Source: Kocuria sp. TGY1127_2
Lineage (GTDB): Bacteria > Actinomycetota > Actinomycetes > Actinomycetales > Micrococcaceae
DNA length: 64,000 nucleotides
Assembly (NCBI RefSeq): GCF_013394385.1
Contig: NZ_AP022834.1
Location: 1,612,001-1,676,000 of the forward strand
Direction of reading: 5' to 3'
Of this stretch, positions 3,081 through 45,474 are shown one piece after another; position 1 is the first letter of the stretch, and each line of letters begins with the position of its first letter. The position numbers and the translations under genes were made by a program. A model generated the notes under the pieces. It was not told the DNA's origin. It saw only the letters and a list, made by a program, of their open reading frames with translations, and searched no databases.

Positions 3081-4135
3081 GGAGCCTCTTTCGTAGGCAT
3101 GTCGATGAGAATCTTTCCGATACGACGAGTCGTGTCACGCATGGTTTCAAAGGCTTCGTTCACGTCCCGAAGATCGAATCGGTGCGTGATCAACGCGTCC
3201 ACCGTCTCGGGGTATCGGCAGATCAGGTCCAGGGCTTTCGGGATGAGGCCACGACTGTTGCGGCTGCCCAGAAGGGAGATCTCCTTGAACGGGAGGAGGT
3301 TCAGGGGGAAATTCGCGGGACGGGTGGAGATACCCACCTGGACTACACGTCCGGCGGGAGCGACCACATTGATCGCATTGCCCAGTGAGGACGGTACGCC
3401 CGTCGCTTCGATGACAAGCTGCGGCCCTTCCGGAGCGGAACATTCCAGCGCCGAAGCGAGATCGGCCGCAGGAAATTGTTGATCCGGGACGATCAGCAGT
3501 GTTCCATCGGCGCCGAATTCTCGTGCGAGCTCTAGCCGATCGGCGATCGTGTCCGCGGTGATGACCGTGACCCCCAGGTCATGCAATGCCAATGTCGCCA
3601 ACAGCCCGATTGGCCCCGCACCCAGGACAAGGGCAGATTCCCCCTCGATCGCTTGTGCACGGGCGACTGCCTCGAGGGAGATCACGGCCGGCTCCGCGAC
3701 GGCCCCCAGTTCCGTTGGCATTCCCTCCGGAATACGGTGCAAGCGCACGGCCGCGACGGGAAGATATTCGACAAGTCCGCCGTCGCAGTAGCAACCGAAA
3801 ACGGTCAGGTAGGGGCATACGTTGTCGTGACCCGATCGGCACGCCCGGCACTGCCCGCAGGCGATCAACGGATCCACTGCCACGCGATCCCCGACCGCCA
3901 CGGTCTCAACGCCCGGAGCCACCTCGGCCACCGTTCCGGATAGTTCGTGGCCCTGGATCAGGGGCAGCTCAGAGGTGTAGTCGTCCTCGTAAATATGAAG
4001 ATCGGTCCCGCACAATGTGACGTGCTCGATGCGCACGAGCGCTTCTCCGGCAGACACCGGCGGCAGGGGGACCGTCACATACTCAAGAGTGTGCGCCGCA
4101 ACGGTCCGAACCGCATGCATGGTCTCTGTATTCAT
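3077..4135 (-). CDS. Zinc-dependent alcohol dehydrogenase (MDR superfamily)
   Basis: A 352-residue medium-chain dehydrogenase. The catalytic domain shows CGTDLHIY (catalytic zinc Cys), GHELSG (zinc His region) and a structural-zinc cysteine cluster CGQCRACRSGHDNVC. The Rossmann domain has LVLGAGPIGLLATLAL. The order matches sorbitol/threonine dehydrogenase-type members, which oxidise secondary alcohols with NAD(P). The long upstream open frame is discarded because ATG at 4135 gives the canonical N-terminus and overlaps the YciI stop (ATGA, 4132-4135). The gene forms a coupled operon with the flavoprotein downstream. The substrate is inferred only as a polyol or cyclic alcohol. Confidence 0.9.
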   Translation of the reverse strand: MNTETMHAVRTVAAHTLEYVTVPLPPVSAGEALVRIEHVTLCGTDLHIYEDDYTSELPLIQGHELSGTVAEVAPGVETVAVGDRVAVDPLIACGQCRACRSGHDNVCPYLTVFGCYCDGGLVEYLPVAAVRLHRIPEGMPTELGAVAEPAVISLEAVARAQAIEGESALVLGAGPIGLLATLALHDLGVTVITADTIADRLELAREFGADGTLLIVPDQQFPAADLASALECSAPEGPQLVIEATGVPSSLGNAINVVAPAGRVVQVGISTRPANFPLNLLPFKEISLLGSRNSRGLIPKALDLICRYPETVDALITHRFDLRDVNEAFETMRDTTRRIGKILIDMPTKEAP

Positions 4136-4443
4136 GAGGCGTCCTTGCCCGAGACGAGACGATCCGCTCCGAATTTGGGAGTCCAAGTCCGGATGATGCG
4201 TGCAACATAGCCGTGCTGCTTGAACGGCTCCTGATCCATGACCTCCTCGACGGCAGCCGCGGAGTCCGCCCGGATGATCAGGAGCGCTCCTTTGTCGCCA
4301 CCATCGATGTCGGTCGGCCCTGAAACCACCAGGCGCCCGGCGTCGAACTGCTCTTGTAGGAATGCCAGATGCTCTTCCTGATGCTCCGCACGACCGGTTT
4401 CGGATCCCTCGGCGTAGCGGTAGTCGACTGCGAAAAGTCCCAT
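4132..4443 (-). CDS. YciI family protein
   Basis: A 103-residue protein with the YciI ferredoxin-like fold pattern: an N-terminal beta strand MGLFAVDYRY, an EHLAFLQEQFDAGRLVVSGP helix-strand, a DGGDKGALLIIRADS strand and a C-terminal HGYVARIIRTW segment. YciI-like proteins often sit in catabolic clusters, and a few act as dehydrochlorinases or muconolactone isomerase-like enzymes; most have no proven reaction. GAGGA lies about six bases before the ATG. It is the first gene of the minus-strand operon and is coupled to the alcohol dehydrogenase by a 4-base overlap. Confidence 0.85.
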   Translation of the reverse strand: MGLFAVDYRYAEGSETGRAEHQEEHLAFLQEQFDAGRLVVSGPTDIDGGDKGALLIIRADSAAAVEEVMDQEPFKQHGYVARIIRTWTPKFGADRLVSGKDAS

Positions 4444-4598
4444 GTTGATTCCTCAATTCATTAGGAGAAAATGTGCGTTGAATCGGGTCGAAGCACAGCG
4501 TCGGAGGCCGACCCGAGGATCACCGTGACGGCCGTTATGGCCGCCGTCCCTCAACGAACATCCTCCGGGGAGAAATCGAGACTGGACAATACCTTTCG

Positions 4599-4617
4599 CT
4601 CATTAATTCATAATGAG
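4599..4617. promoter_or_regulatory. Perfect inverted repeat, candidate LysR operator
   Basis: CTCATTA, five bases (ATTCA), then TAATGAG form a perfect 7-bp-arm dyad in the 219-bp divergent region between the YciI operon (minus) and the LysR gene starting at 4663. It contains a T-N11-A LysR box and sits 46 bp before the LysR start, where an autoregulatory site of this family is usually found. Binding is an inference. Confidence 0.5.
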
Positions 4618-4662
4618 TCCGATACTGTGTACATATCCGCACATAATCTTCGAGGGGGCCAA

Positions 4663-5568
4663 ATGATGGAACTGCGGTGGCTGGAAGCGTTTGTTGCGGT
4701 CGCGGAAGAGCTTCACTTCGGACGAGCTGCGGAGAGATTGCACATGGCACAATCTCCGCTGAGCCAAGTTATTCGCAAGCTTGAGAAAAACGTCGGTTCA
4801 CCGCTTTTCAAACGGAGTACCCGGACCGTGGAGCTGACCGCCCCGGGGCAGGCCCTGCTTCCGTACGCCTACCGAATCCTGCGAAGCTTGAATAACGCTA
4901 TGGACGCGGCCCGCAGCGCGGAAGGCGTGCCCACGGGACGATTTACCCTTGGATTCTCAGGGATGCACAATCACGACACTCTCCCCCGCATCACTCGAGC
5001 CCTGAGAGAAAACTTTCCTGGTGTCGATCTCAACCTCGTCGGCGGCATCCGCACCTTTGACGGCATGCGCCAAGTACGCAACGAAGATTTGGACGCCAGC
5101 TTCTTAGGCATCATCGGCGACGTTGGCACGCCGTTACGGGCTCGCGAAATCTCGCGCCACCACTTGGGGGTCGTGGTACCGACGGATCATCCGCTCGCCC
5201 ATCGAGATGCGATTCCGATCCATCAATTGCGTGGAGAATCTTTCGTCATGGGTCCGGTCGACGGCAACTCCTCAATGACCGTTGCGGCCCTACAAATCTG
5301 CCACGCGGCCGGATTCCAACCCGAAATAGCACAAGCCGTCAGTGATCCGTTCCTCATCGTATCCATGGTGGCCGCCGGGGTCGGCATCACGATCTTACCC
5401 TCGGAGGTTCTGCCGATCCTGCCCGAGGCCGCAACCTGGATCGAGCTCGAGGGTGATCCAGTGCCATTCAGCCACGGAGTCGTATGGTCCGATGACAACG
5501 AGTCCGAACCCCTTCAGGCATTCCTGACCATCCTGGACTCGATCTTCCCCGAACCGACACTCCAGTAA
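4663..5568 (+). CDS. LysR family transcriptional regulator
   Basis: A 301-residue LysR regulator with an N-terminal HTH (residues 1-60: MMELRWLEAFVAVAEELHFG, then AAERLHMAQSPLSQVIRKLE) and a substrate-binding domain with RFTLGFSG and GVGITILPSEVLP segments. The frame opens upstream at 4471, but ATG 4663, preceded by GAGGGGGCC, places the HTH at the N-terminus; a second ATG follows at 4666. It is divergent from the YciI/dehydrogenase operon and upstream of the MHS transporter at 5724, so it probably controls both sides from the palindrome at 4599-4617. The inducer is unknown. Confidence 0.92.
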   Translation: MMELRWLEAFVAVAEELHFGRAAERLHMAQSPLSQVIRKLEKNVGSPLFKRSTRTVELTAPGQALLPYAYRILRSLNNAMDAARSAEGVPTGRFTLGFSGMHNHDTLPRITRALRENFPGVDLNLVGGIRTFDGMRQVRNEDLDASFLGIIGDVGTPLRAREISRHHLGVVVPTDHPLAHRDAIPIHQLRGESFVMGPVDGNSSMTVAALQICHAAGFQPEIAQAVSDPFLIVSMVAAGVGITILPSEVLPILPEAATWIELEGDPVPFSHGVVWSDDNESEPLQAFLTILDSIFPEPTLQ

Positions 5569-5607
5569 CTATGTTCCGGGCCCACATAGTCCGAGTGCTA
5601 TTAAGTC

Positions 5608-5637
5608 TTGGATTTTAACAATCTCTGTACATACTCT
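5608..5637 (+). promoter_or_regulatory. Candidate promoter of the MHS transporter operon
   Basis: TTGGAT (5608-5613), an 18-base spacer and TACTCT (5632-5637) lie about 90 bp upstream of the transporter start. A TGTACATA element overlaps the spacer and also occurs at 4627-4635 in the LysR promoter region, which suggests a shared regulator. The match to a sigma-70 consensus is moderate. Confidence 0.3.
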
Positions 5638-5723
5638 CGTAAGGTATCGCATATCACACCTAGCCAGGTCGTTCATCTGAGAACCTCCGGTGTACCCCGA
5701 GCCTGGGCGAGAAGGAGACCACG

Positions 5724-7058
5724 ATGACGACGGAGTCATTGAATCCGAGCAAGATATACAGCGAGAAGAAACGCCGCAATGCCCGCACCGCGGCGATTTC
5801 AGGATTTGCCGGAAGTGCCCTGGAGTACTACGACTTCTTCATCTTCGCGACAGCGGCCGCTCTGTACCTTCAAGACTTGTACTTCCCGGGTGGCGGAACC
5901 ACCGGACAATTGTTCTCCTTGGCAACCATAGGTGTCGCTTACATCACCCGTCCGCTCGGCGCACTGCTGTGGGGTCATCTGGGTGATGTCATCGGACGCA
6001 AGAAAGTCTTGATTATGGTGCTCATCCTGATGGGCGCCTCCACATTCGTGATCGGGCTGGTCCCCACGTACGCGTCCATCGGCATCTGGGCTCCCATCAT
6101 CGTGGTTGTTCTGCGACTGGCCCAGGGCTTGTCCGCCGGCGGTGAGTCTCCCGGCTCGGCCTCGCTGACCATGGAACATGCCCCCGACCATCGCAGAGGC
6201 TTCTTCTCGAGTTGGACGCTTTCCGGAGTCACCTTCGGAATCGTCCTGTCTTCAGCGGTTTTCATCCCGTTGCAGGCCCTGCCCGAGGAATCCTTGATGA
6301 GCTGGGGTTGGCGCGTGCCATTCCTACTTTCCGCGCTGGTGACGGCAATAGCTTTAGTACTGCGCCGCACCCTTGATGAGCCCGAGGAATTCACAGAGAC
6401 CAAAGAGCTCGACCTGGTCGTCAAGGTTCCTGCATTCGAACTTTTCCGCCACCATCCGAAGACCCTTCTGCTGGTCACCGGAATGACCCTTTTCACGATG
6501 GTCAACACCATCATCAATGTTTTCGCCCTCGCCTACGGCTCCAACGTGGCCGGTATCCCCAGGCAGGACATGCTGACCTTCGTCAGCGTCGCCAACCTCA
6601 TTGCCGTTTTCGCGCTGCCGCTATGGGGCATGCTCTCGGACAGGATCGGAAGAAAACCGGTATTCATTGCTGGAATCATCGCCCAGGTGATTCTGATCTT
6701 CGCATTCTTCTGGATCCTGGCCGGAAGCGTCACGGCTAATATTTGGTGGGTCTGGATTATCGGAATCCTGCTGATCGCCGGCGGCTACTCGATGAGCAAT
6801 GCGGTCTATCCCGCGTACTTCCCCGAACAGTTCCCCACCAACGTGCGCTACTCCGGCATGGCGATCTGCCTCATGATCGGTCTGCTCCTGGCCGGCTTCA
6901 CCCCCGCGATCGCTGAGTCCATCTCGGGCCCGCACCACAATTGGTTTGGCGTCGCCCTCTTCTCTGCAATCTGCGTCGCCATCTCCGGAGTCTGTGCAGC
7001 ATTCAGCACGGAAACGTACCGGACTCCGACCTCGGAACTCGGTAGAAGCGGCGCTTGA
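5724..7058 (+). CDS. MFS transporter, metabolite:H+ symporter (MHS) family
   Basis: A 444-residue 12-helix permease. The N-terminus has the MHS signature SALEYYDFFIFATAAALY, the first cytoplasmic loop reads GHLGDVIGRKKVLI, and a second GRKP loop (SDRIGRKPVF) lies before helix 8. Family members (ShiA, KgtP, ProP, PcaT) import small organic acids or betaines with protons. AGAAGGAGAC precedes the ATG. It follows the LysR gene on the same strand and precedes a flavoprotein, a Gfo/Idh enzyme and a TIM-barrel isomerase, so it should import the substrate of that pathway. A hydroaromatic or carboxylic acid is likely, but this is inference. Confidence 0.9.
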   Translation: MTTESLNPSKIYSEKKRRNARTAAISGFAGSALEYYDFFIFATAAALYLQDLYFPGGGTTGQLFSLATIGVAYITRPLGALLWGHLGDVIGRKKVLIMVLILMGASTFVIGLVPTYASIGIWAPIIVVVLRLAQGLSAGGESPGSASLTMEHAPDHRRGFFSSWTLSGVTFGIVLSSAVFIPLQALPEESLMSWGWRVPFLLSALVTAIALVLRRTLDEPEEFTETKELDLVVKVPAFELFRHHPKTLLLVTGMTLFTMVNTIINVFALAYGSNVAGIPRQDMLTFVSVANLIAVFALPLWGMLSDRIGRKPVFIAGIIAQVILIFAFFWILAGSVTANIWWVWIIGILLIAGGYSMSNAVYPAYFPEQFPTNVRYSGMAICLMIGLLLAGFTPAIAESISGPHHNWFGVALFSAICVAISGVCAAFSTETYRTPTSELGRSGA

Positions 7059-33955: not shown

Positions 33956-35428
33956 ATGATGGGTTCATTTCACATCACCGTCAACGGCCAACCCCGAGAA
34001 GATGCCAACGTACCTGTGTACCTCAATCTGCTGGACTGGCTCCGCAATCTGGGCCTCACCGGTGCCAAAGAAGGTTGTGCAGAAGGGGAATGCGGCGCGT
34101 GCGCCGTCCTGATCGCTCGACCGGACGGTGACGGGGGTTCCCGATGGACGTCCGTCAACGCGTGCCTGACACCGGCACTCGCATGCAACGGCCAGGAGGT
34201 CATCACCTCGGAAGGGCTCGGGACCTGCCCCGGACCAGGGTCCGATGAGGACCTTCACCCTGTACAGCGCGAAATGGCCTACCGTGGCGGATCCCAGTGC
34301 GGCTTCTGCACCCCCGGCTTCATCTGCTCGATGGCCGCCGAGTACTACCGACCCGAACGCGCCACCGAATCCGTCTCCGAGGCGACCGAAGAGATGGGTG
34401 GCAACGGTTTCGACCTGCACGCCCTATCGGGAAACCTCTGCCGTTGCACCGGATACCGTCCCATCAAGGATGCCGCATATGCACTCGAGACACCGGACAA
34501 GGACGACCCCCTGTTCGAACGCCAATCGTCCTCGGCTCCGCCGGCGTGCCGCACCGAAGTGCACACCGAGACCTCGACGTTCGTCCGCCCTTCCAGCATT
34601 GAGGAATTGGCGCAACGGTGCGCGGACCACCCGGATGCGGTGCTCCTCGCCGGTGGGACCGATGTCGGGGTCGAAACCAATATTCGGCATATTCGCCCCG
34701 AGACGGTCCTGGCCATCGATCACCTCGAGGGGCTCCGCTCTTTCCGATTCGCGGAGGACTACGTGGAGCTCGGAGCCTCAATGACCCTTTCTGAACTGGA
34801 GCGTGGCCTGGACGGTCGGATTCCGCTGCTTGCCCAGCTCATCCCCCAGTTCGCATCACGGCTGGTGCGCAACAGCGCTACGTTGGGCGGCAACCTCGGC
34901 ACGGGGTCGCCAATCGGCGACTCCGCTCCCGTACTCCTGGCCCTGGACGCTTCCCTCGTATTGTTCTCGACGTCGGGCGAGCGCACCGTGCCGATCTCCG
35001 AATACTTCACCGGGTACAGACAGACCGTCCGGGAACCGGGAGAGTTCATTCGCGCGGTCCGAATCCCGATGCCACTCTCGGAAACCACGGCTTTCTACAA
35101 GGTCGCCAAACGACGATTCGACGACATCTCATCGGTCGCAACGGCCTTCTCCATGCAGCTCGAACAAGGTCGCATTTCCTCGATTCGGATCGGAATGGGT
35201 GGTGTCGCGGCCACGCCCATTCGTGCGCTCGCCGCCGAGCGAGCCCTTGTGAACCAGCCATGGACGGAGGAGACGGCCCGTGAGGCCTCCGCCCTGATGA
35301 CCGCCGAAAGCACACCCATGGACGACCACCGCGCGAGCTCGCGCTATCGATCACAAATGCTCGAGCAGAGCATGATGCGATTCTTCGCCCAATACCGTCC
35401 CTCCGAATACATAGGAGCGAAATCATGA
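33956..35428 (+). CDS. xdhA: Xanthine dehydrogenase small subunit (2Fe-2S and FAD domains)
   Basis: A 490-residue fused FeS/FAD subunit. The plant-type [2Fe-2S] domain has KEGCAEGECGACAV (Cys 41, 46, 49) plus Cys 70. The second cluster has GGSQCGFCTPGF and GNLCRCTGYRPI (Cys 115, 118, 162, 164). The FAD domain shows VLLAGGTDVGVE and SATLGGNLGTGSPIGDSAP. It carries electrons from the Moco subunit to NAD+ during hypoxanthine and xanthine oxidation. GTG 33953, ATG 33956 and ATG 33959 are all possible; AGGAGG at 33945-33950 is best spaced for the two ATGs. The stop overlaps xdhB (ATGA, 35425-35428). Confidence 0.95.
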   Translation: MMGSFHITVNGQPREDANVPVYLNLLDWLRNLGLTGAKEGCAEGECGACAVLIARPDGDGGSRWTSVNACLTPALACNGQEVITSEGLGTCPGPGSDEDLHPVQREMAYRGGSQCGFCTPGFICSMAAEYYRPERATESVSEATEEMGGNGFDLHALSGNLCRCTGYRPIKDAAYALETPDKDDPLFERQSSSAPPACRTEVHTETSTFVRPSSIEELAQRCADHPDAVLLAGGTDVGVETNIRHIRPETVLAIDHLEGLRSFRFAEDYVELGASMTLSELERGLDGRIPLLAQLIPQFASRLVRNSATLGGNLGTGSPIGDSAPVLLALDASLVLFSTSGERTVPISEYFTGYRQTVREPGEFIRAVRIPMPLSETTAFYKVAKRRFDDISSVATAFSMQLEQGRISSIRIGMGGVAATPIRALAAERALVNQPWTEETAREASALMTAESTPMDDHRASSRYRSQMLEQSMMRFFAQYRPSEYIGAKS

Positions 35429-37869
35429 ACACGGTCACCCAACCCCCAGCCAGCTCGAACCCTGCCGGCGTCGGCACGCGAGTCTCCCATGAGAGCGCCG
35501 CGCTACACGTCACCGGTGAGGCCCTGTATACCCACGACCTCGCCACCCGGGACAAGAGCGCCCTTCACGCTTGGCCCGTCCAATCCCCTCACGCCCACGC
35601 GTTCGTCACCTCCCTGCGCACCGAACGTGCCCGCAAGGTCCCGGGTGTTGTTGAGGTCCTGACGGCCGAGGACGTGCCGGGACTCAATGACGCCGGCGTC
35701 AAACACGATGAGCCTCTTTTCCCCTCCGAGGTCATGTACTTCGGACATGCCGTGTGCTGGGTCATCGGCGAGACCACGGAGGCAGCCCGGCAGGGCGCGG
35801 AGGCCGTGGAGATCGACTACGAGCCTCTGTCCTCGATCGTGACCCTTCCTGAGGCGATCGATTCAGGCAGTTTCCAGGGCCCGCAGCACCTCTTGGAACG
35901 TGGTCAATCCGGTCCCGCGCTCGATAATTCTGCGCACCGGTTCCGCGGGACTTTCGAATTCGGCGGGCAGGAACATTTCTACCTGGAGACGCACGCATCC
36001 TATGCGCGCGTGGACGAGGGTGGTCAGGTCCTGGTCAATTCCTCGACCCAGCACCCGTCCGAGACCCAGGAAATCGTGGCCCACGTGCTGGGGCTGTCCA
36101 GCCACGACGTCACGGTCCAATCTTTGCGCATGGGCGGCGCATTCGGCGGCAAGGAAATGCAGCCACATGGTCTCGCAGCCATCGCCGCGATCGCGACTGT
36201 GCGCACGGGAAAGCCGGTCAGCCTGCGACTGACCAGGACACAGGACATCACCATGACCGGAAAACGTCATCCGTTCCACGCGGAGTGGGAGGCCGGTTTC
36301 GACGAGCAAGGCAGGTTCACGGCCCTCGAGGCCACCCTGACCGCCGATGGCGGCTGGGCGATGGATCTTTCGGAGCCCGTGCTCTCCCGGGCCATGTGCC
36401 ACATAGACAATGCCTACATGATCCCCAACGTGTCGGTCACCGGAAGAATCGCCCAGACGAATAAAACCTCCCAGACCGCATTCCGAGGATTCGGCGGCCC
36501 CCAGGGAATGCTGGTCCTGGAGAACATTCTCGGCCGCTGCGCTCCCTTGATCGGGCTCGATGCCGGCGAGCTTCGCCGCCGTAACTTCTATCAGCCCGGC
36601 GACACCACACCCTACGGCCAACCGGTTCGGCATGCCGAACGGATCGCGGAGATCTGGGGGACGCTGAACGAACGCGCGGACGTGGTGCGCCGGAAGGCCG
36701 AAATCGCGGAATTCAACGCCGCGCACACTGATACCAAAAAGTCCCTGGCCATGACACCGGTCAAGTTCGGAATTTCGTTCAACTTCGCTGCCTTCAACCA
36801 GGCCGGAGCCCTGGTACACGTCTACAAGGACGGTTCCGTGCTCATCAATCATGGCGGCACCGAGATGGGGCAGGGGCTGCACACCAAAATGCGGCAGGTC
36901 GCCGCAACGACCCTTGGGGTGGGTCTGGAGCGGGTGCGCTTGGCGCCGACTCGCACGGACAAGGTGCCCAATACCTCCGCGACGGCCGCGAGCTCCGGCG
37001 CAGATCTCAACGGCGGCGCGGTGAAGAACGCGTGTGAGCAGATTCGGGGGCGCCTGGCACAGGTCGCCGCAGGAAAGTTCGGCGCCAATCCACACGACGT
37101 TCGATTCGAGGATGACGGCGTCGCGGCGCTAGGCAAGGACCCTGTACGTTTCGAAGAGGTGGTCTCGGATGCCTACTTGCAAAGGGTTCAGCTCTTCGCC
37201 GCTGGTTACTACCGCACCGAGGGAATCCACTGGGACTCTGCGAATATGCACGGTTCCCCCTTCAAGTACTTCGCCTATGGTGCCGCTGCGACCGAGGTGG
37301 AGGTCGATGCTTTCACCGGGGCTTACCGTGTACTCAGGACCGATATCGTGCACGACGTCGGAGACTCGCTGTCCCCATTGGTGGACGTGGGCCAGATCGA
37401 AGGCGGATTCGTCCAAGGCACGGGGTGGTTGACCCTCGAGGAGCTTCGCTGGGACACCTCCGACGGCGAGAGGAGGGGGCGCCTCGCGACGCAGGCAGCG
37501 AGCACGTACAAGCTGCCGAGCTTCTCCGAACTTCCTGAAGAGTTCAACGTCCACCTCTACGAGCGGGCCACCGAATCGGGGGTCGTCTACGGCTCCAAGG
37601 CCGTCGGAGAGCCGCCGCTGATGCTTGCGATGAGCGTGCGGGAGGCCCTGCGAACCGCGGTCGAGGCATTCGGCCCCGAGGGGGTCGAAGTAGACCTGGG
37701 ATGTCCTTCCACACCAGAAGCGGTGTTCTGGGCAATCCAGGAAGCAAGGGGCAAGGTTGCCGGTGGTGAGGCTGTGCGAGCCGAAGAAGATCGAGAAGAC
37801 GTCGGCAGCGCACCGGGGCCGGGCCCTCACGCTGCCAAGTCTCCGGAACCTGAAACCGAGTCCGTCTGA
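35425..37869 (+). CDS. xdhB: Xanthine dehydrogenase large, molybdenum-binding subunit
   Basis: An 814-residue molybdopterin subunit. Key segments are GGQEHFYLET (substrate pocket), SLRMGGAFGGKEMQ, QTAFRGFGGPQGMLVLEN, INHGGTEMGQGLHTK and VYGSKAVGEPPLMLAMS, whose Glu is the catalytic base of the family. It oxidises hypoxanthine to xanthine to urate. The last 50 residues are acidic and low in complexity (EEDREDVGSAPGPGPHAA), an unusual tail. Translation is coupled to xdhA by ATGA and to xdhC by a shared TGATG (37867-37871), so the three form a tight operon. Confidence 0.96.
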   Translation: MNTVTQPPASSNPAGVGTRVSHESAALHVTGEALYTHDLATRDKSALHAWPVQSPHAHAFVTSLRTERARKVPGVVEVLTAEDVPGLNDAGVKHDEPLFPSEVMYFGHAVCWVIGETTEAARQGAEAVEIDYEPLSSIVTLPEAIDSGSFQGPQHLLERGQSGPALDNSAHRFRGTFEFGGQEHFYLETHASYARVDEGGQVLVNSSTQHPSETQEIVAHVLGLSSHDVTVQSLRMGGAFGGKEMQPHGLAAIAAIATVRTGKPVSLRLTRTQDITMTGKRHPFHAEWEAGFDEQGRFTALEATLTADGGWAMDLSEPVLSRAMCHIDNAYMIPNVSVTGRIAQTNKTSQTAFRGFGGPQGMLVLENILGRCAPLIGLDAGELRRRNFYQPGDTTPYGQPVRHAERIAEIWGTLNERADVVRRKAEIAEFNAAHTDTKKSLAMTPVKFGISFNFAAFNQAGALVHVYKDGSVLINHGGTEMGQGLHTKMRQVAATTLGVGLERVRLAPTRTDKVPNTSATAASSGADLNGGAVKNACEQIRGRLAQVAAGKFGANPHDVRFEDDGVAALGKDPVRFEEVVSDAYLQRVQLFAAGYYRTEGIHWDSANMHGSPFKYFAYGAAATEVEVDAFTGAYRVLRTDIVHDVGDSLSPLVDVGQIEGGFVQGTGWLTLEELRWDTSDGERRGRLATQAASTYKLPSFSELPEEFNVHLYERATESGVVYGSKAVGEPPLMLAMSVREALRTAVEAFGPEGVEVDLGCPSTPEAVFWAIQEARGKVAGGEAVRAEEDREDVGSAPGPGPHAAKSPEPETESV

Positions 37870-38666
37870 TGGAATGGTTGGCTGGTCTCCAAGAGCTGCA
37901 CGAGGAAGGGGCCGCGGGGGTTCTGGTGACTTTGACATCGGTGCGAGGTCACGCCCCTCGCGCGGCCGGGGCAAAGATGGTCGTGGCCCGTGGCCGTGCG
38001 TGGGACACCGTCGGCGGCGGGAATCTCGAGGCCACCCTGACGGAGCAGGCGCGCGAAATGCTGAGCGCTGGCGAATCCGATCCCCGTTCCGAGGAGATCT
38101 CCCTCAACGAACACGCCACGACCCGGTACGGTCAGCAGTGCTGCGGCGGGAAGGTCACGGCCCTTCTCGAGCCGATTGCCGCACCGCCCGTCGTTGCAAT
38201 CTTCGGAGCCGGGCACGTGGGTCTCGAGGTGGCCCGGGCCTTGTCCCGCCTCCCCGTGACCTTGAACCTGACGGACAGCCGCCAGGCCGCAGTCGATGCG
38301 GCCGAAGCTCTCAAGCCCCTCGACGGTTCCGCAACACTTCGCGTGAACCATGCTCCGGCTCCGGAAGCAGTTTTGAAGGAGCTGCCCGCGGGTAGCCACA
38401 TTCTGATCATGTCCCACGACCACTCCGAGGACCTCATTCTGTGCGATACGGCTTTGGGACGCGATGACCTTGCTTCGGTGGGGTTGATCGGTTCCTCAGC
38501 CAAGTGGGCACGCTTTCGGAAGCGATTGCTGGATCTGGGGCACAGCGAGGCAGCCCTTGACGGGATCACGTGCCCCATCGGTATCCCCGGAATCGACGGA
38601 AAATCGCCCGCAGTCATTGCAATCAGCGTGGTGGCGGCCCTAGCCCAGGTGATCGACTGGCCCTGA
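37869..38666 (+). CDS. xdhC: Xanthine dehydrogenase accessory protein XdhC (Moco sulfuration/insertion)
   Basis: A 265-residue XdhC-type protein that binds molybdenum cofactor, protects it during sulfuration and inserts it into XdhB. The N-terminal XdhC/CoxI domain shows TSVRGHAPRAAGAKMVV and DTVGGGNLEATL. A QQCCGGKV motif (two adjacent Cys) follows, and the C-terminal Rossmann domain has VAIFGAGHVGLEVARALS and VGLIGSSAKWARFRKRL. It is the last gene of the xdh operon. Immediately downstream and convergent is the bacteriocin cassette. Confidence 0.94.
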   Translation: MEWLAGLQELHEEGAAGVLVTLTSVRGHAPRAAGAKMVVARGRAWDTVGGGNLEATLTEQAREMLSAGESDPRSEEISLNEHATTRYGQQCCGGKVTALLEPIAAPPVVAIFGAGHVGLEVARALSRLPVTLNLTDSRQAAVDAAEALKPLDGSATLRVNHAPAPEAVLKELPAGSHILIMSHDHSEDLILCDTALGRDDLASVGLIGSSAKWARFRKRLLDLGHSEAALDGITCPIGIPGIDGKSPAVIAISVVAALAQVIDWP

Positions 38667-38739: not shown

Positions 38740-39396
38740 TCAGGGACGAAAGTGCGCGACGTCGATGGTCCGGTCGCACAGATCCATGACGTCCTGGTTG
38801 TGCGTTGCGATGACCGCGGCCCCGCCGCGAGCGACCATCTCCCGGACCTTGGTCAGGACCAGCGCACCGTTCTCGGCGTCGAGGGCGCCGGTGGGTTCGT
38901 CGGCCAGGACCATGCTCGGGCGTTTGAGCATCACACCGGCCAGCGCGACCCGCTGCTGTTCACCGCCGGACAGGTGGTAGACCTTGCTGTTCTCGCGGCC
39001 CTCGATTCCGACGTCGGCCAGCGCCCGCGATATCTCCTCTCGGTCGGGCCGGTCACTGCGTGGGAGCAGACGCAACGGCTCCTGAAGGTTCTTGAGTACC
39101 GTGTCCGACTCGACCAGCGCGTAGTTCTGGAAGAGATAGCCGAGATGTCGGCGTCGGAATTCCCTTTGTTTCCGTGGCGCGCGGCGTGAGAAATCCTGGC
39201 CCATCATGGTGAGCCGCCCCGAGGTCAGTTCGCTGAGGCCCCCAGACAGTTCAGCAGGGTCGTCTTGCCGTATCCGGACGGGCCGACGAGCGCGACCATT
39301 TCGCCGGGTTCGATCGTGAGATTGCCGCCGCGCCAAATAGTCGACGAACCAATGACTTTCTCCCCCCTCGCTGACGACGACGATCGGTTCAGGCAT
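38740..39396 (-). pseudogene. ABC transporter ATP-binding protein of a lactococcin 972 bacteriocin cassette, with two compensating frameshifts
   Basis: The literal 218-codon frame has a good start (MPEPIVVV) and good motifs from [13 protein letters not shown] onward: Q-loop YLFQNYALVES, signature LSGGEQQRVA, Walker B MVLADEPTGALD and H-loop ATHN. Between them, codons about 12-52 are nonsense in this frame. The true sequence, with Walker [14 protein letters not shown], is in the next frame. One G too many in the G6 run (39362-39367) and one too few in the G5 run (39239-39243) account for both switches. A normal protein would be a MacB-like ATPase paired with the membrane protein upstream. As read, Walker A is lost and the protein should be inactive. 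Confidence 0.8.
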
Positions 39397-41212
39397 CTCG
39401 GGACCTCCTGGAGATGTGGTGACGATAGGTGCGGTTCAGGGACGTGAGCATGAGCGAAGCATTGAGCAGGACCAGGAGTGCTCCGAAGATCGAACATTCC
39501 CGTGTAGTACTGACGGTTTTCGTGGAATGACACTCCGGTGAGTATGTCGAGTTCGGAGGCCACCGCTGCTTTGTGGAGAATCCACCAGCCGAAGGCCACG
39601 CCAACCACCGCTTCGAGCCAGAGGACATGACGCAAACCTCGGGCTCACGATTCTCCGAATAAGTGGCCGCGGAAGAGCCGCTGATCCCGTTCCGAGACAT
39701 GGATTGTGGAGAATTCGACGGTCGCGAAGAAGAGTAGAACCACCAGAAGGCAGATCGAGTACACGGAACTGAAGGAGTCGACTCGGTCGAGCCCCTGGGA
39801 CCACCCGTAGTCGAAGATTGGTTCCTTCGACTCGTAGTGGGAGACCCGGACATCGCGTTCTTCGTGCCTGTCGACTCCGTACGGGAGGTGATCCACTACG
39901 TTCTCGATAGTTGTCTCGGCCTCGTCCGGGACGGTGAGCCTCATCGAGCGCGGGTCCTGACGAACGTCTTTTTCCGCATCCGGGAAACGCTGAGCATTGT
40001 GATGAATGTACTGATCGTTGACGAACAGTACCGAGCCTTCAGGTCGCCACGGTTCGTTCGTTGAGGTGGAAATGAGGTTGTCCCGGTGTGCGACGATGAT
40101 GTTGTTCTGTTTGATCTCTTCGGCGAACCATTGCGTCAGCCGTTTTTCCTCGTCCTCACTACGATCGGCACCAGCAATATTGACGAAGTAGGCGTGAGGG
40201 TTGGATTCCCAGGAGGACCGCGATTCCGCGTGGGATCGAAGAATCAGCGCTGTTCCGATGGCCCCGAAGGCCGTCACAAGAATCATGATGAGCGCGAAGC
40301 CCCTGGCCAAACCCATGGATGCGTAAACAAATCGTGCTGGCTGTTTTCGCTTGAGAGCATCTGAAATGGGGACACGGGTGCAAAAGAATATGGTGGCGGC
40401 GTGAACGGCCAAGCACACAACGACGGGTAGGCCAAGAATTGCCGCACCGAGCAGGAAAAACAGAGACGCGAAAGCAAGGTCGCTGTAGATTTTGAGAAAT
40501 GCCGCAGAGAGGGTGGCGGTGAGGATGGCGGACCCCAGCAAGGGAACAGCAATATCGGCAATATCGTGCTTGAAAACTTCCCAGGGGCTGGCTCCATAGA
40601 GGCGTTTTCTGGCGTACCGACGGCCGCCCAGTAGGATCGAGGAACACAGACTGAAGAGAATGATTCCGATGCTCGATATAAATGCAGCGACCAAGGGGGT
40701 GCGCCCCATGGAGCGCATGACATTGTCCGCAGAAAACATTCCGTATTGCATCCCCGAATACCCGCTCTGAGCGCCGACCTTGGAGACCAGCCTTTCAGCC
40801 CGGTCACGGTCCCCGTAGATCACATACCATCCGAGCGGGTCCGCCTCAGGACTTTCCCGTACGGCAACTCTCACACCCTGGCTTAGATTGAACGCCGGAT
40901 GCCCGGAATCAGGCCAGTGCGCCGACGGCAGCTCGGGATTTCCAATCACCATCTCCAAATGTTGACCGGTTTCGGGACGCTCTGAATCGGCCCCAATCTT
41001 GGCTATATTGACCCCCGCTGTTTTGCCGTTGTCGTCAACGAATCGTGGAATTTCTGGGGGTCTGAATTCTCTTCAGAATTCTTGAACCACGCGATATCGC
41101 CAAATCCCAGGGTCGTTTCGGCATCAATGGAGAACAAAGCTCCGAAGACGAAAACGAAAGCCACCACGGGGAGATTTAAGTAAGCTAGGGAAAGTCTCAC
41201 ATTGTTTTTCAT
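39389..41212 (-). pseudogene. Bacteriocin-associated integral membrane protein (DUF1430-like), broken by two frameshifts and a stop
   Basis: The reading starts at ATG 41212 with a membrane segment (LSLAYLNLPVVAFVFVFGAL). It shifts frame at the C5 run 41056-41060, where one more C restores DPPEIPRFVDDNGKTAG, and runs through about six more helices (VAAFISSIGIILFSLCSSIL; GLARGFALIMILVTAFGAIG). It meets an in-frame TGA at 39645-39647 and continues as [13 protein letters not shown]. It then shifts again near 39485-39497 (GMFD to [14 protein letters not shown]) and ends at 39389, overlapping the ATPase start by 8 bp. The repaired length is about 608 residues. Such proteins accompany lactococcin 972-type bacteriocins and with the ATPase give export and/or immunity. 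A nonsense codon outside any homopolymer argues for true decay. Confidence 0.8.
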
Positions 41213-41264
41213 GGTTCGGGGGCGCCCCGGTCCGCTCAGATCGGGACGCTCTACCTCGAAATTC

Positions 41265-41546
41265 TTAGCAGTAGTTCCAATATGCCTTGTCAATGGCATA
41301 CCATCTTGACGGCGCAGAGACCTTAGCCCAATGTCCAGCAGGTGTATTGCCTGACTTCGCCACAAAGGTCCCCTTCGCCGTGCTACCGTGACATCGCCAG
41401 TGATACAGGTAATCTGAGAACACCCCTCCACCGCTTACTCCGTGATCCCAATAGCCTCCGCGGACATGATCGGTGGCCTGGGCGGCAGCCACTGCACCGA
41501 AGGCGAGCACGGTGTCCGTTGCGACAGAAATAATCTTCCTCTTCAT
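41265..41546 (-). CDS. Lactococcin 972 family bacteriocin precursor
   Basis: A 93-residue precursor. A Sec signal peptide (KRK, hydrophobic core with an odd Asp at 11, cleavage likely after AAAQA24) precedes a 69-residue mature peptide. This has the family layout: GGYWDHG near the start, GGGVFSDYLYHW, a middle with HGSTAKGTFVAKSG, GHWAKVSAPS and an aromatic C-terminus AYWNYC. Lactococcin 972 binds lipid II and blocks septum formation. Unlike lactococcin 972, this peptide has two cysteines (52 and 93, the last residue), which could form a disulfide. AAGGGG precedes ATG 41546. It is 52 bp upstream of the broken membrane gene on the same strand, and is itself intact. Confidence 0.85.
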   Translation of the reverse strand: MKRKIISVATDTVLAFGAVAAAQATDHVRGGYWDHGVSGGGVFSDYLYHWRCHGSTAKGTFVAKSGNTPAGHWAKVSAPSRWYAIDKAYWNYC

Positions 41547-41845: not shown

Positions 41846-41972
41846 GACCAACCCCCGAAGCGGCGATTTTGAACAGATTCCGCATCCAGACGCCACACCA
41901 AACTGCCACTTCGACCATTCGCCACCGCCACCGTCCGCATCGACGCGGCATAAAACCCCACCGCACACCCCC

Positions 41973-42050: not shown

Positions 42051-42545
42051 ATGAGACTCGCGGAGTTCAATGAGATCGACCCCGTCACCGCGCGAGCGAC
42101 CATCGCTCCAGCCCTCGACATCCCCCGGTGGGTCGAGGAGGTCGCGGCGGGCCGCCCGTATGGCTCGGTGACCGAGGCCATCGACGTCGCCCGCGACGCC
42201 GCCCACCCGTTCACCGACGCCGAGATCGATCGCGCCCTCTCCCATCACCCGCAAATCGGTGAGCGGGACGAAACGGAATCTGAGGAGGCCAAGCACTCCC
42301 GGTCGGAACAGGCCGGGCTCGGTGAAGCATCGGCGTCGACCATTGAGGCCCTCGCCGCCGGCAACCGGGTCTACGAAGATCGTTTCGGCCACGTGTTCCT
42401 GATTCGCGCCGCAGGTCGCTCGCACGAAGAAATCCTCTCTGAACTCCATCGGCGCCTGAACAACTCCCCCAAAGCTGAGCGCACGGAAGTCGCCGAGCAA
42501 CTGCGTGATATCGCCGCCCTGCGCATCGAAGGAATACTGTCATGA
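42051..42545 (+). CDS. uraD: 2-oxo-4-hydroxy-4-carboxy-5-ureidoimidazoline (OHCU) decarboxylase
   Basis: A 164-residue OHCU decarboxylase, the third step from urate: it yields (S)-allantoin. The catalytic His lies in SHHPQIGER (H66). ARDAAHPFTDAEID and LAAGNRVYEDRFGHVFLIRA are family segments, followed by ERTEVAEQLRDIAALRIEGI. AGGAGGCGACC precedes ATG 42051. The stop overlaps uraH (ATGA, 42542-42545). It opens the urate operon downstream of the candidate GAAAC/GTTTC operator. Confidence 0.95.
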   Translation: MRLAEFNEIDPVTARATIAPALDIPRWVEEVAAGRPYGSVTEAIDVARDAAHPFTDAEIDRALSHHPQIGERDETESEEAKHSRSEQAGLGEASASTIEALAAGNRVYEDRFGHVFLIRAAGRSHEEILSELHRRLNNSPKAERTEVAEQLRDIAALRIEGILS

Positions 42546-42868
42546 GCTTCATTTCCGCCCACGTCCTCGACTCCGTCCACGGCTGCCCGGCCGCCGGTAT
42601 CGCTGTGACGCTCCTCGAGGGCTCCGGCGAGAAGATCGCCACAGCAACCACGAACGAGGACGGCCGAGTCAACGACCTCGGCCCAGAGACCCTGGAGTCC
42701 GGCCATTACCGGATCATTTTCGCGACCGAACCATACTTCTCCGGGCTGGGCCTGGAGACGTTCTACCCGTTCGTCGCGGTGGATTTCACGGTACAGAAGC
42801 AACAGGGGCACTACCACGTGCCTCTCTTGCTCAGTCCGTACGCGTATTCCACATACCGCGGCAGTTGA
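42542..42868 (+). CDS. uraH: 5-hydroxyisourate hydrolase (transthyretin-like)
   Basis: A 108-residue HIU hydrolase that opens 5-hydroxyisourate to OHCU. The active-site residues of the family are present: H7 in SAHVLD, R42 in DGRVND, H92 in GHYHVPLLLSPY, and the C-terminal YRGS tetrapeptide that separates these enzymes from animal transthyretin. Translation is coupled to uraD, and uricase follows 73 bp on. Normal length; cytoplasmic tetramer in the family. Confidence 0.96.
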   Translation: MSFISAHVLDSVHGCPAAGIAVTLLEGSGEKIATATTNEDGRVNDLGPETLESGHYRIIFATEPYFSGLGLETFYPFVAVDFTVQKQQGHYHVPLLLSPYAYSTYRGS

Positions 42869-42941
42869 ACCAGGAGCCGACCCCTTGTCGACGATTGCCG
42901 ATCCACCACACCCAACGAAAATGCAGCAGGAGCTGAACATC

Positions 42942-43826
42942 ATGACCAACGTTGTCCTCGGAAAGAACCAGTACGGCAAGGCCGAGAACCACGTGGTGCG
43001 GGTCAACCGCGCCACGGACCGTCACACGCTGCGCGATCTCGTGGTCACCTCCCAATTGAGGGGCGACTTCGAAGCGGTGCACACCGAAGGCGATAATGCC
43101 CATTGCGTGGCAACCGATACTCAGAAAAACACAGTATTCGCGCTAGCCCAGAAGCACGACATCAAGAGTCCGGAGGAGTTCCTGAGCACGCTCTCGGACC
43201 ACTTCACTTCCGGATTCGACTGGGTTTCCGGTGGTCGTTGGGCGGCCGAAGAGCACCTCTGGAATCGGATCAATGATCACGACCACTGCTTCGTTCAGAA
43301 CAAGGACGAGGTCCGCACCGCGGTCGTCGTCACCGACGGAGAGAAGAAGACCGTGATCTCGGGGTTCAAAGACCTCACCGTGCTCAAGTCGACCGAGTCG
43401 GGCTTCGTCGGGTACCCCAAGGACGAATTCACCACGCTCAAGGAGACCGACGACCGCGTTCTGTCCACGGATATCGCAACCCGCTGGCGCTACAACACCA
43501 CGGAAGTGGACTTCGATGCCACCTACGAGGATGTCAAGAACATCATCCTCGACAAGTTCACCGATCACTATTCTCGCGCCCTGCAAGAGACCTTGTACCT
43601 CATGGGCAAGGCCGTGATAGAAGCACACCCGGAGATCGACGAGATCAAGTTCTCCTGCCCCAACAAGCATCATTTCGTCTACGACCTGAGCTTCTGCGGT
43701 GAAGAGAACAGCAACGAGACCCACTACGCCGCCGATCGCCCCTACGGGCTGATTGAGGCGACCGTGCAGCGCCAAGGCGCTCCCGAAGACGAGAATGCCT
43801 GGTTCGGCATCGCCGGCTTCTGCTGA
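42942..43826 (+). CDS. uox: Urate oxidase (uricase)
   Basis: A 294-residue cofactor-free uricase oxidising urate to 5-hydroxyisourate. Segments match the Arthrobacter-type enzyme: LGKNQYGKAENHVV (catalytic Lys), TSQLRGDFEAVHTEGDNAHC, VATDTQKNTVFALA (catalytic Thr), FDWVSGGRWAAEEHLWNRIN, PNKHHFVYDLSF, YAADRPYGLIEATVQR and the C-terminal IAGFC. ATG 42942 is chosen because AGGAG lies nine bases upstream and the product starts as in homologues; the frame is open to TTG 42885. It is followed by a GC hairpin and then the second xanthine permease. Confidence 0.96.
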   Translation: MTNVVLGKNQYGKAENHVVRVNRATDRHTLRDLVVTSQLRGDFEAVHTEGDNAHCVATDTQKNTVFALAQKHDIKSPEEFLSTLSDHFTSGFDWVSGGRWAAEEHLWNRINDHDHCFVQNKDEVRTAVVVTDGEKKTVISGFKDLTVLKSTESGFVGYPKDEFTTLKETDDRVLSTDIATRWRYNTTEVDFDATYEDVKNIILDKFTDHYSRALQETLYLMGKAVIEAHPEIDEIKFSCPNKHHFVYDLSFCGEENSNETHYAADRPYGLIEATVQRQGAPEDENAWFGIAGFC

Positions 43827-43844
43827 CCCCCGGACCCCAAGCAA

Positions 43845-43883
43845 AGTCCCCGCCCCTCTCCCCCGAACGACGGGGCGGGGACT
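43845..43883 (+). terminator. GC hairpin between uricase and the NCS2 permease
   Basis: AGTCCCCGCCCC (43845-43856) pairs perfectly with GGGGCGGGGACT (43872-43883). No T tract follows. It may be a partial terminator or an mRNA-stabilising structure separating the urate enzymes from the permease gene 37 bp downstream. Confidence 0.5.
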
Positions 43884-43920
43884 CATCGCTCAAGGACCGA
43901 CACTCAGGAAGGCTAACCCC

Positions 43921-45474
43921 ATGTCGAGCAAGGTCACCGCCGAAGAACGCCCGCGGCCAGAGGACAAATACCTCGGCCTCGGTCCCAGCTTCGGCTATGG
44001 ATTCCAACACGTATTGACGATGTACGGCGGCATCATTGCCCCGCCGCTGATCGTCGGCGGCGCCGCCGGACTGTCCGGAAGCGAACAGGCCCTACTGGTC
44101 GCGTGCTGCCTCTTCATCGGCGGACTGGCAACCCTGCTTCAGTCCTTCGGCATCAAATTCTTCGGATCCCAGTTGCCCCTGGTTCAGGGCACCTCGTTCG
44201 CGAGCGTGGCCACCATGACGGCGATCGTGAGCGGCGACGGAGGCATTCAGGCCGTTTTCGGCGCTGTCATGATCTCCGCTTTTATCGGCTTCCTGATCAC
44301 GCCCTTCTTCGCCCGCATCATCAGGTTCTTCCCACCCGTAGTCACCGGCGTCGTGATCACGACCATCGGGCTGTCCCTGTTCCCTACGGCGGTTCAGTGG
44401 GCGATGGGCGGAGCAGACGTCGAGGCAACAGGAGATGCACCAACGATCGTCAAGAATGTATGCCTCGCGGGCGGCACACTTCTGATCATTCTATTGCTCT
44501 CCAAGGTGGGCAGTGCAGCAATATCGCGCCTGTCCATTCTTCTGGGCATCGTCCTGGGCACCGTCCTGGCCGTCGTGCTCGGCATGGCCGACTTCTCTGC
44601 CATAGGTGACGGCGCGATCTTTGCTTTCCCTCAACCCTTCGCATTCGGCCTTCCGACGTTCGACCTCGCGGCCGTCGTCTCTATGACCATTGTCATGTTG
44701 GTGATCCTGACCGAAACCACCGCCGACATTCTTGCGGTGGGTGAAATCGTGAATTCTAAAGTGGACCGTCGGCGAATCGGCGACGGCCTGCGCGCGGATA
44801 TGGGCGCATCCTTCATCGCCCCCATTTTCAACGGTTTCACGCAGTCGGCCTTTGCCCAGAACGTTGGCCTGGTCGCAATCACCGGCGTGAAATCGCGATT
44901 CGTAGTCACAGCCGGAGGCGCGATCATGCTGGTCCTCGGCCTGCTCCCCATCCTGGGGCGAGTGGTCTCAGCGGTTCCCCCGCCCGTCCTGGGCGGCGCA
45001 GGAATCGTTCTGTTCGGTACGGTGGCCGCGTCGGGCATCCGCACGCTCAGCACGGTCAAGTACGAGGGCACCTCGAACCTGATCATCGTTTCCGCTTCCC
45101 TCGGCGTAGGCCTGCTGCCCGTCGTCAAGCCTGACATCTACAGCGGATTCCCAAGCTGGTTCGAAACCATTTTCCACTCGGGCATCAGCTCGGCTGCCGT
45201 CGTCGCCGTTCTGCTGAACCTGCTGTTCAACGAACTCAAGTTCGGAAATCCACCTGCCGGCGAGGGGTCCGTGTTCGCTTCGGCGCCTCCGAGGTACGTC
45301 CCCTTCGAAGCCCTCGAACAGCTTCGAGGCCGCCTCCACGAGGGGGACGTCGTCAAGGACGGGAAGATCCTGGACGCGGATGGAAACGAAGTCCCGTGCA
45401 TCACAGCTTCCGGCCAGGTCGTCGATGCCCCCGCGATGGACAACATCACCGAGGCCGCATCAGAGGAACATTGA
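43921..45474 (+). CDS. NCS2 family xanthine/urate permease
   Basis: A 517-residue nucleobase:cation symporter-2 protein with FGYGFQHVLTMYGGIIAPPL, LPLVQGTSFASVATMTAIV, TADILAVGEIVNSKVDRRRI, QSAFAQNVGLVAITGVKSRF and FPSWFETIFHSGISSAAVVA. It is close in sequence pattern to the permease at 31782, including the EGDVVKDGKILDADGNEVPC tail. AGGAAGG precedes ATG 43921. Placed after uricase, it may import urate or xanthine while the other copy serves guanine and xanthine. A hairpin terminator follows before the convergent IclR gene. Confidence 0.92.
   Translation: MSSKVTAEERPRPEDKYLGLGPSFGYGFQHVLTMYGGIIAPPLIVGGAAGLSGSEQALLVACCLFIGGLATLLQSFGIKFFGSQLPLVQGTSFASVATMTAIVSGDGGIQAVFGAVMISAFIGFLITPFFARIIRFFPPVVTGVVITTIGLSLFPTAVQWAMGGADVEATGDAPTIVKNVCLAGGTLLIILLLSKVGSAAISRLSILLGIVLGTVLAVVLGMADFSAIGDGAIFAFPQPFAFGLPTFDLAAVVSMTIVMLVILTETTADILAVGEIVNSKVDRRRIGDGLRADMGASFIAPIFNGFTQSAFAQNVGLVAITGVKSRFVVTAGGAIMLVLGLLPILGRVVSAVPPPVLGGAGIVLFGTVAASGIRTLSTVKYEGTSNLIIVSASLGVGLLPVVKPDIYSGFPSWFETIFHSGISSAAVVAVLLNLLFNELKFGNPPAGEGSVFASAPPRYVPFEALEQLRGRLHEGDVVKDGKILDADGNEVPCITASGQVVDAPAMDNITEAASEEH

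What the first reader, a model, noticed from the sequence alone, without database searches (positions are those of the whole stretch)
38740..41546. Intact lactococcin 972-type bacteriocin beside a wrecked ABC immunity/export pair
The three-gene order (bacteriocin, DUF1430-like membrane protein, MacB-like ATPase) is that of lactococcin 972 cassettes. The precursor is intact with a good signal peptide and binding site. The membrane gene has two frameshifts and a stop, and the ATPase loses Walker A. Because the precursor has its own Sec signal, it could still be secreted. The cell would then need another immunity route, or the peptide has a new role. The cassette lies between xdhC and uraD in reverse orientation, which suggests insertion into the purine locus.
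Basis: partly seen in the sequence, partly recalled or inferred. Interest (0 to 1): 0.75.

Follow-up and report, generated by a model that had tools for sequence, protein, structure and literature searches.

The report
Decaying lactococcin-972-type bacteriocin cassette in Rothia
A bacteriocin gene set in a Rothia genome is rotting away: the toxin-precursor gene can still be read but its two partner genes are broken, a sister species has broken the same set in different places, and the cell carries an apparently complete second set elsewhere, so this is mostly ordinary gene decay.

Summary
The anatomy is real: an open 93-codon lactococcin-972-family precursor (41546-41265, minus), then a broken TIGR01654-like membrane gene and a broken TIGR03608-like ATPase gene. 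Walker A is not lost but stands out of frame between two ATPase frameshifts.

The lesions are natural: five flanking purine genes align to sister species Rothia uropygialis without gaps, and an independent public protein shares the deletion and three frameshifts. The sister has the same cassette at the same xdhC-uraD site, broken differently (precursor frameshifted, ATPase open). A further relative has none there.

"Bacteriocin without immunity" is overstated. The genome has two more cassettes in tandem, one apparently complete. The precursor shows no clear extra constraint; under random damage a gene that short would escape five lesions about 61% of the time; and its signal peptide has an acidic residue in its core.

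In 28 related cassettes the precursor is the part most often broken (8 of 28; membrane gene 5 and ATPase 1 of 27 assessable). Open precursor with both partners broken was seen only here, so the pattern is unusual. A redundant, probably silent cassette explains it best.

The parts
41265..41546 (-). lclA-like precursor, 93 aa, lactococcin 972 family; open frame
   Evidence: PF09683 46.1 bits, TIGR01653 35 bits; full-length variant P0001, 97% identical
41475..41546 (-). signal-peptide region of the precursor (residues 1-24, boundary inferred) with an acidic residue at position 11
   Evidence: hydropathy comparison; no signal-peptide program was available
39390..41212 (-). TIGR01654-like membrane protein gene, broken: frameshift near 41.01 kb, 71-codon in-frame deletion near 39.77 kb, TGA at 39645-39647, frameshift near 39.49 kb
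   Evidence: P0004 (69% identical, 710 aa) shows that intact relatives exist
38740..39396 (-). TIGR03608-like ABC ATPase gene, broken by two frameshifts; P-loop coding stretch survives out of frame
   Evidence: sister copy is open, 218 aa
37869..38666 (+). xdhC (left flank)
   Evidence: PF13478, PF02625
42051..42545 (+). uraD, OHCU decarboxylase (right flank)
   Evidence: PF09349
41547..42050 (.). spacer between precursor and uraD, 76.8% identical to the sister; no sigma-70-type consensus found

Best explanation
This is a redundant, decaying three-gene lactococcin-972-type cassette. It was present at the xdhC-uraD site in the common ancestor of this Rothia and R. uropygialis (inferred from the shared site). 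It was then broken independently in the two lineages; I found no lesion in common. In this lineage the precursor frame is the part not yet interrupted. Its export was probably weakened by the acidic residue in the signal core (inferred), or its expression was lost (not tested), which would make the partner genes dispensable. The cell keeps one apparently complete, distantly related cassette of the same family elsewhere (shown by sequence), which may supply the working bacteriocin and its self-protection (inferred).
For: Same cassette at the same site in G025, R. uropygialis strain 36, with other lesions: precursor frameshift, membrane-gene stops and frameshifts, ATPase open. Cassette-free 463-bp spacer in G010. 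Independent public protein P0003, 98% identical to the window's middle piece, shares the 71-residue deletion and the three frameshifts downstream of it but has a sense codon where the window has TGA. Five flank genes align without gaps. dN/dS 0.28-0.99 in cassette parts (precursor 0.47, ATPase 0.31) against 0.05-0.40 in five flank genes. Precursor differs from P0001 at 3 of 93 residues, the dead membrane piece from P0003 at 9 of 435. If lesions fall at random by length, a gene this short escapes five with probability 0.61 and six with 0.55. Two further cassettes at C1:1975785 and C1:1979092.
Against: The precursor is open and scores above the family cut-offs. Of 27 assessable cassettes none other combines an open precursor with a broken membrane gene and a broken ATPase (G101 has an open precursor and a broken membrane gene only), and precursors are the part most often broken (8 of 28), so the order of loss here is atypical and the random-damage figure may overstate the chance of escape. 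Precursor dN/dS (0.47) is below 1, within the range of the other cassette parts, and rests on one sister sequence that is itself broken. The 5' frameshift and the TGA are not confirmed by P0003. No expression data.
Confidence: 0.85

Rival explanations
1. Orphan producer: the precursor is still made and exported through Sec, and the cell is protected by the membrane protein/ATPase pair of the tandem cassette (cross-immunity) or by a change in its own target.
For: Open precursor with ribosome-binding-site-like stretch; apparently complete tandem cassette 1 in the same genome. [quoted passage not shown]
Against: Precursors only 37-40% and membrane proteins only 24-27% identical between the cassettes, so cross-immunity is not a given. 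Acidic residue in the signal core. No sign of extra constraint. Sister copy frameshifted.
Confidence: 0.08
2. Sequencing or assembly artefact: the genes are intact in the real genome.
For: Some of the single-base gaps lie in short runs of one base, where some platforms err (read by eye).
Against: P0003, a different sequence, carries the deletion and three of the four frameshifts. The 6.7 kb of aligned flank has one 2-base gap run. The tandem cassettes of the same assembly are open.
Confidence: 0.03
3. Repurposed peptide: the precursor has gained a role unrelated to killing, so the partner genes were shed.
For: Only the precursor frame is open in this strain, and a 97% identical full-length variant P0001 exists.
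Against: No constraint beyond that of the dead neighbour gene. Broken in the sister species. Its identified neighbours are only the broken cassette genes and purine genes.
Confidence: 0.03

Closest known systems
Lactococcin 972 cluster lcn972-orf2-orf3 of plasmid pBL1, Lactococcus lactis (PMC4055356; passages seen)
   Same: [quoted passage not shown] same precursor family
   Different: Here chromosomal, in an actinobacterium, with both partner genes broken
Streptococcin B locus scbABC of pneumococcus (PMC11796350; passages, section 5)
   Same: Lactococcin-972-like A-B-C locus with natural partial versions
   Different: The partial form there is the reverse: the paper reports 157 of 571 genomes with scbBC only, without the bacteriocin
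Tandem lactococcin-972-type cassettes at C1:1975785 and 1979092 of the same genome
   Same: Same family and order A-B-C
   Different: Precursors 37-40% and membrane proteins 24-27% identical; reading frames open, second ATPase with atypical P-loop
xdhC-site cassette of Rothia uropygialis strain 36 (L022/L062)
   Same: Orthologous: same site; DNA identity 89.4% precursor, 93.6% membrane gene, 96.3% ATPase
   Different: Different lesions: precursor and membrane gene broken, ATPase open

Membership tests
Lactococcin 972 family bacteriocin precursor (PF09683 / TIGR01653) | Profile match over the curated cut-off | tested here: met
   46.1 bits vs 22 and 35 bits vs 32.1
Lactococcin 972 family bacteriocin precursor (PF09683 / TIGR01653) | N-terminal Sec signal peptide | tested here: inconclusive
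   Basic start and AQA-like end, but an acidic residue in the core; 11-residue uncharged run vs 17-21 in 10 others; no predictor available
Lactococcin 972 family bacteriocin precursor (PF09683 / TIGR01653) | Beta-sandwich fold | tested here: inconclusive
   Model from a 2-row alignment had mean pLDDT 42.6, not usable; sequence search finds 9hkj (E 0.11) and 2lgn (E 0.28) only weakly
Lactococcin 972 family bacteriocin precursor (PF09683 / TIGR01653) | Lipid II binding and septum inhibition | not testable with these tools
   Needs assay
Complete lactococcin 972 cassette | Downstream TIGR01654-type membrane protein with open frame | tested here: not met
   Longest stop-to-stop stretch 475 codons vs 665-757 in the 22 cassettes counted as open; TIGR01654 36.7 bits vs cut-off 189.35. 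No match in 35 Rothia genomes reaches that cut-off, so the score alone is not telling
Complete lactococcin 972 cassette | TIGR03608-type ATPase with Walker A in frame | tested here: not met
   Two frameshifts; no P-loop in the ATPase frame; tail matches TIGR03608 at 156.2 bits vs cut-off 254.85. That cut-off is not reached in any of 35 Rothia genomes either

The most novel reading that the evidence does not exclude
A natural strain still secretes a lactococcin-972-type peptide whose own membrane protein and ATPase are dead, and survives through the distantly related pair of its tandem cassette or through an insensitive target. That would show that the cassette's own B/C genes are not needed for export, and would give a natural test of what they do.
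Probability: 0.08. Interest if true: 0.5.

Novelty: new member of a known kind. Interest (0 to 1): 0.2.

Why it matters
As it stands it matters little: it is a worked case of parallel decay of a redundant bacteriocin cassette in two sister Rothia species. [quoted passage not shown] Natural partial cassettes in this family of bacteria (precursor broken in 8 of 28, membrane gene in 5 of 27 assessable) are a comparison set for that question. The window's own case is confounded by the tandem cassettes in the same cell.

Tried and rejected
Mobile-element origin: no long terminal repeats; the flank genes that I identified are purine genes, but I did not scan every ORF for transposases. In plasmids, 150 records match the cassette DNA, none over 80% of it, and the 10 rows listed lie in the ATPase part; the intact relative P0004 finds two Streptomyces plasmids at 22%. 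Phage and viral collections were not searched. Element in the uraD spacer: one exact pattern match in the genome, the spacer itself. RNA families: two sub-threshold matches to miRNA families, taken as chance. Promoter scan: 0 sites vs 1.3 expected from shuffles; uninformative for this phylum. Structure model too poor to use. The five-row alignment had one row in a wrong frame and was replaced. In one search the ATPase-tail query was cut in a wrong frame; that row is not used. Genome contigs gave one confirmed locus, R. uropygialis; records near the window's own may be left out there.

Literature: 'lactococcin 972' + 'immunity' + 'ABC transporter' 43 papers, 25 listed; 'Rothia' + 'lactococcin 972' 1; 'uropygialis' + 'Kocuria' + 'bacteriocin' 4; 'lactococcin 972' + 'Actinobacteria' 19, 15 listed; a six-term search on orphan or broken bacteriocin genes, 7. 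These were seen as listings. Passages only were seen of PMC4055356, PMC12328743 (not relevant) and PMC9964109 (nothing on cognate immunity used); of PMC11796350 passages and section 5. I found no report on this locus in these searches.

Survey rule: 20 PF09683 matches in the 35 Rothia genomes plus 8 more from the 295 family genomes (sampled, completeness 95 or more), one to three per genome. G018 was cut by its contig end and left out for membrane gene and ATPase (27 assessable). Precursor state was judged by eye; G005b is counted as open though I could not recognise its signal. Membrane gene and ATPase were judged by longest stop-to-stop stretch.

Full report
What is there. On the minus strand between xdhC and uraD lie a 93-codon open frame (41546-41265) that matches the lactococcin 972 family over the curated cut-offs, then pieces of a TIGR01654-like membrane protein gene (about 41212-39390), then pieces of a TIGR03608-like ATPase gene (39396-38740). 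The deletion shows as a 212-base gap against the sister, whose own frame also changes there, and as a 71-residue jump against the intact relative P0004. The ATPase has two frameshifts. The stretch between them still encodes GPSGYGKTT, in another frame.

Are the lesions real? The window lies in a 2.997-Mb genome of two contigs. Against the sister genome G025, the left flank 35425-38666 has no gap and the right flank 42051-45474 one 2-base gap at 43834, beyond the uricase stop. The cassette 38740-41546 has seven gap runs. P0003 comes from a source coded 'lgn', which I take to be public metagenome assemblies (recalled). It is 98% identical to the window's middle piece. It carries the same 71-residue deletion and reads, as the window does, through the three frameshifts near 39.49, 39.37 and 39.24 kb, but has a sense codon in place of the TGA. 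So these lesions exist outside this assembly, and the TGA is probably younger. The frameshift near 41.01 kb is not independently confirmed, because P0003 begins downstream of it.

Which organism. G025 is in the same genus. Its cassette contig is NZ_NOIS01000002.1, titled Kocuria sp. 36, and the precursor on a contig of the same length is named Rothia uropygialis by NCBI. L062 and L022 are identical over the 9 kb compared. The window is therefore a Rothia; no call names its species.

The sister and the outgroup. G025 carries the same cassette at the same site, broken elsewhere: precursor frameshifted, membrane gene with stops and frameshifts at other places, ATPase open at 218 aa. By eye I found no shared lesion. 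G010 has xdhB, xdhC, uraD, uraH, uricase and permease in the same order with a 463-bp spacer and no cassette match. The five other genomes with a uraD match (G023, G012, G022, G009, G002) show no xdhC in the fetched stretch and say nothing on the site. The simplest history is gain before the window/G025 split and independent decay after it. Gain versus loss in G010 rests on one genome.

Is the precursor being kept? Window against sister, dN/dS is 0.47 for the precursor (11.5 synonymous, 18.5 nonsynonymous differences), 0.28-0.99 for membrane-gene pieces, 0.31 for the ATPase and 0.05-0.40 for five flank genes. Against the closest public variants the precursor differs at 3 of 93 residues (P0001) and the dead membrane piece at 9 of 435 (P0003); these may come from different strains, and that they are of the same species is inferred. 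If five disabling lesions fell at random by length, the 282-bp gene would escape with probability 0.61, and six with 0.55. Nothing shows that selection keeps the precursor. But the survey below suggests that precursors are hit more often than their length predicts, so this chance may be overstated. In both P0001 and the window an acidic residue at position 11 cuts the hydrophobic core of the signal peptide. The longest uncharged run is 11 residues, against 17-21 in 10 of 10 other signals, hand-picked from the Rothia set; four of these ten come from precursors broken elsewhere. This is a hydropathy comparison, not a predictor. It makes efficient export doubtful and is a candidate first step of decay.

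Self-protection. The genome has two more PF09683 genes 3.3 kb apart. Cassette 1 (L021 about 3205-6361) has an open precursor, a 699-codon membrane ORF and an ATPase with canonical P-loop. Cassette 2 (L021 6509-9516) is open throughout, but its ATPase has an atypical P-loop (APSGSRKT) where G025's counterpart is canonical. Both are distant from the window cassette (precursor 37-40%, membrane protein 24-27%), so cross-immunity is possible but unproved.

How unusual is the pattern? PF09683 matches occur in 13 of 35 Rothia genomes and in 19 of 295 genomes sampled from the family. In 28 cassettes the precursor is broken in 8 (G025 tandem 2, G025 xdhC-site, G009a, G023, G027a, G026, G021, G187); 5 of these 8 keep open membrane and ATPase frames. 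Of 27 with enough sequence, the membrane frame is open in 22 and broken in 5 (window, G025 xdhC-site, G027a, G026, G101). The ATPase frame has a canonical P-loop in 25, an atypical one in 1 (tandem 2) and none in 1 (the window). Open precursor with both partners broken is 1 of 27. A partial locus of the opposite kind, partners without bacteriocin, is reported for pneumococcal scb (157 of 571 genomes, PMC11796350, section 5). I read the window as a cassette already silent or unexported, and therefore free to lose anything. A secreting orphan is not excluded.

Verdict. The interpretation of an armed but unprotected cell is not supported. It is a degraded member of a known family, of modest interest as part of a natural set of partial cassettes.

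Noticed in passing
G000:C1 about 1975700-1982000 (L021 3205-9516): Two lactococcin-972-type cassettes in tandem, also in tandem in R. uropygialis (L023); the second ATPase of the window's genome has an atypical P-loop, the sister's is canonical.
   Followed up: partly
L022, L023, L055, L059, L060, L027, L028, L068: Eight of 28 cassettes have a broken precursor; five of the eight keep open membrane and ATPase genes and could be immune non-producers.
   Followed up: partly
35 Rothia genomes: The TIGR01654 and TIGR03608 models reach their cut-offs in 0 of 35 Rothia genomes, although open membrane and ATPase genes stand behind many precursors, so automatic annotation may miss these cassettes.
   Followed up: no
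window 41265-41546 and relatives in L021, L058, L065: Several precursors share a cysteine in a CHG motif and a C-terminal cysteine, which could form a disulfide; not compared with lactococcin 972 itself.
   Followed up: no
window 41893-41910; L049 about 5909-5960: A GTGGCAGTT-type stretch, partly palindromic in L049, lies in the xdhC-uraD spacer of both the window and the cassette-free relative G010, suggesting that it belongs to the old spacer.
   Followed up: partly
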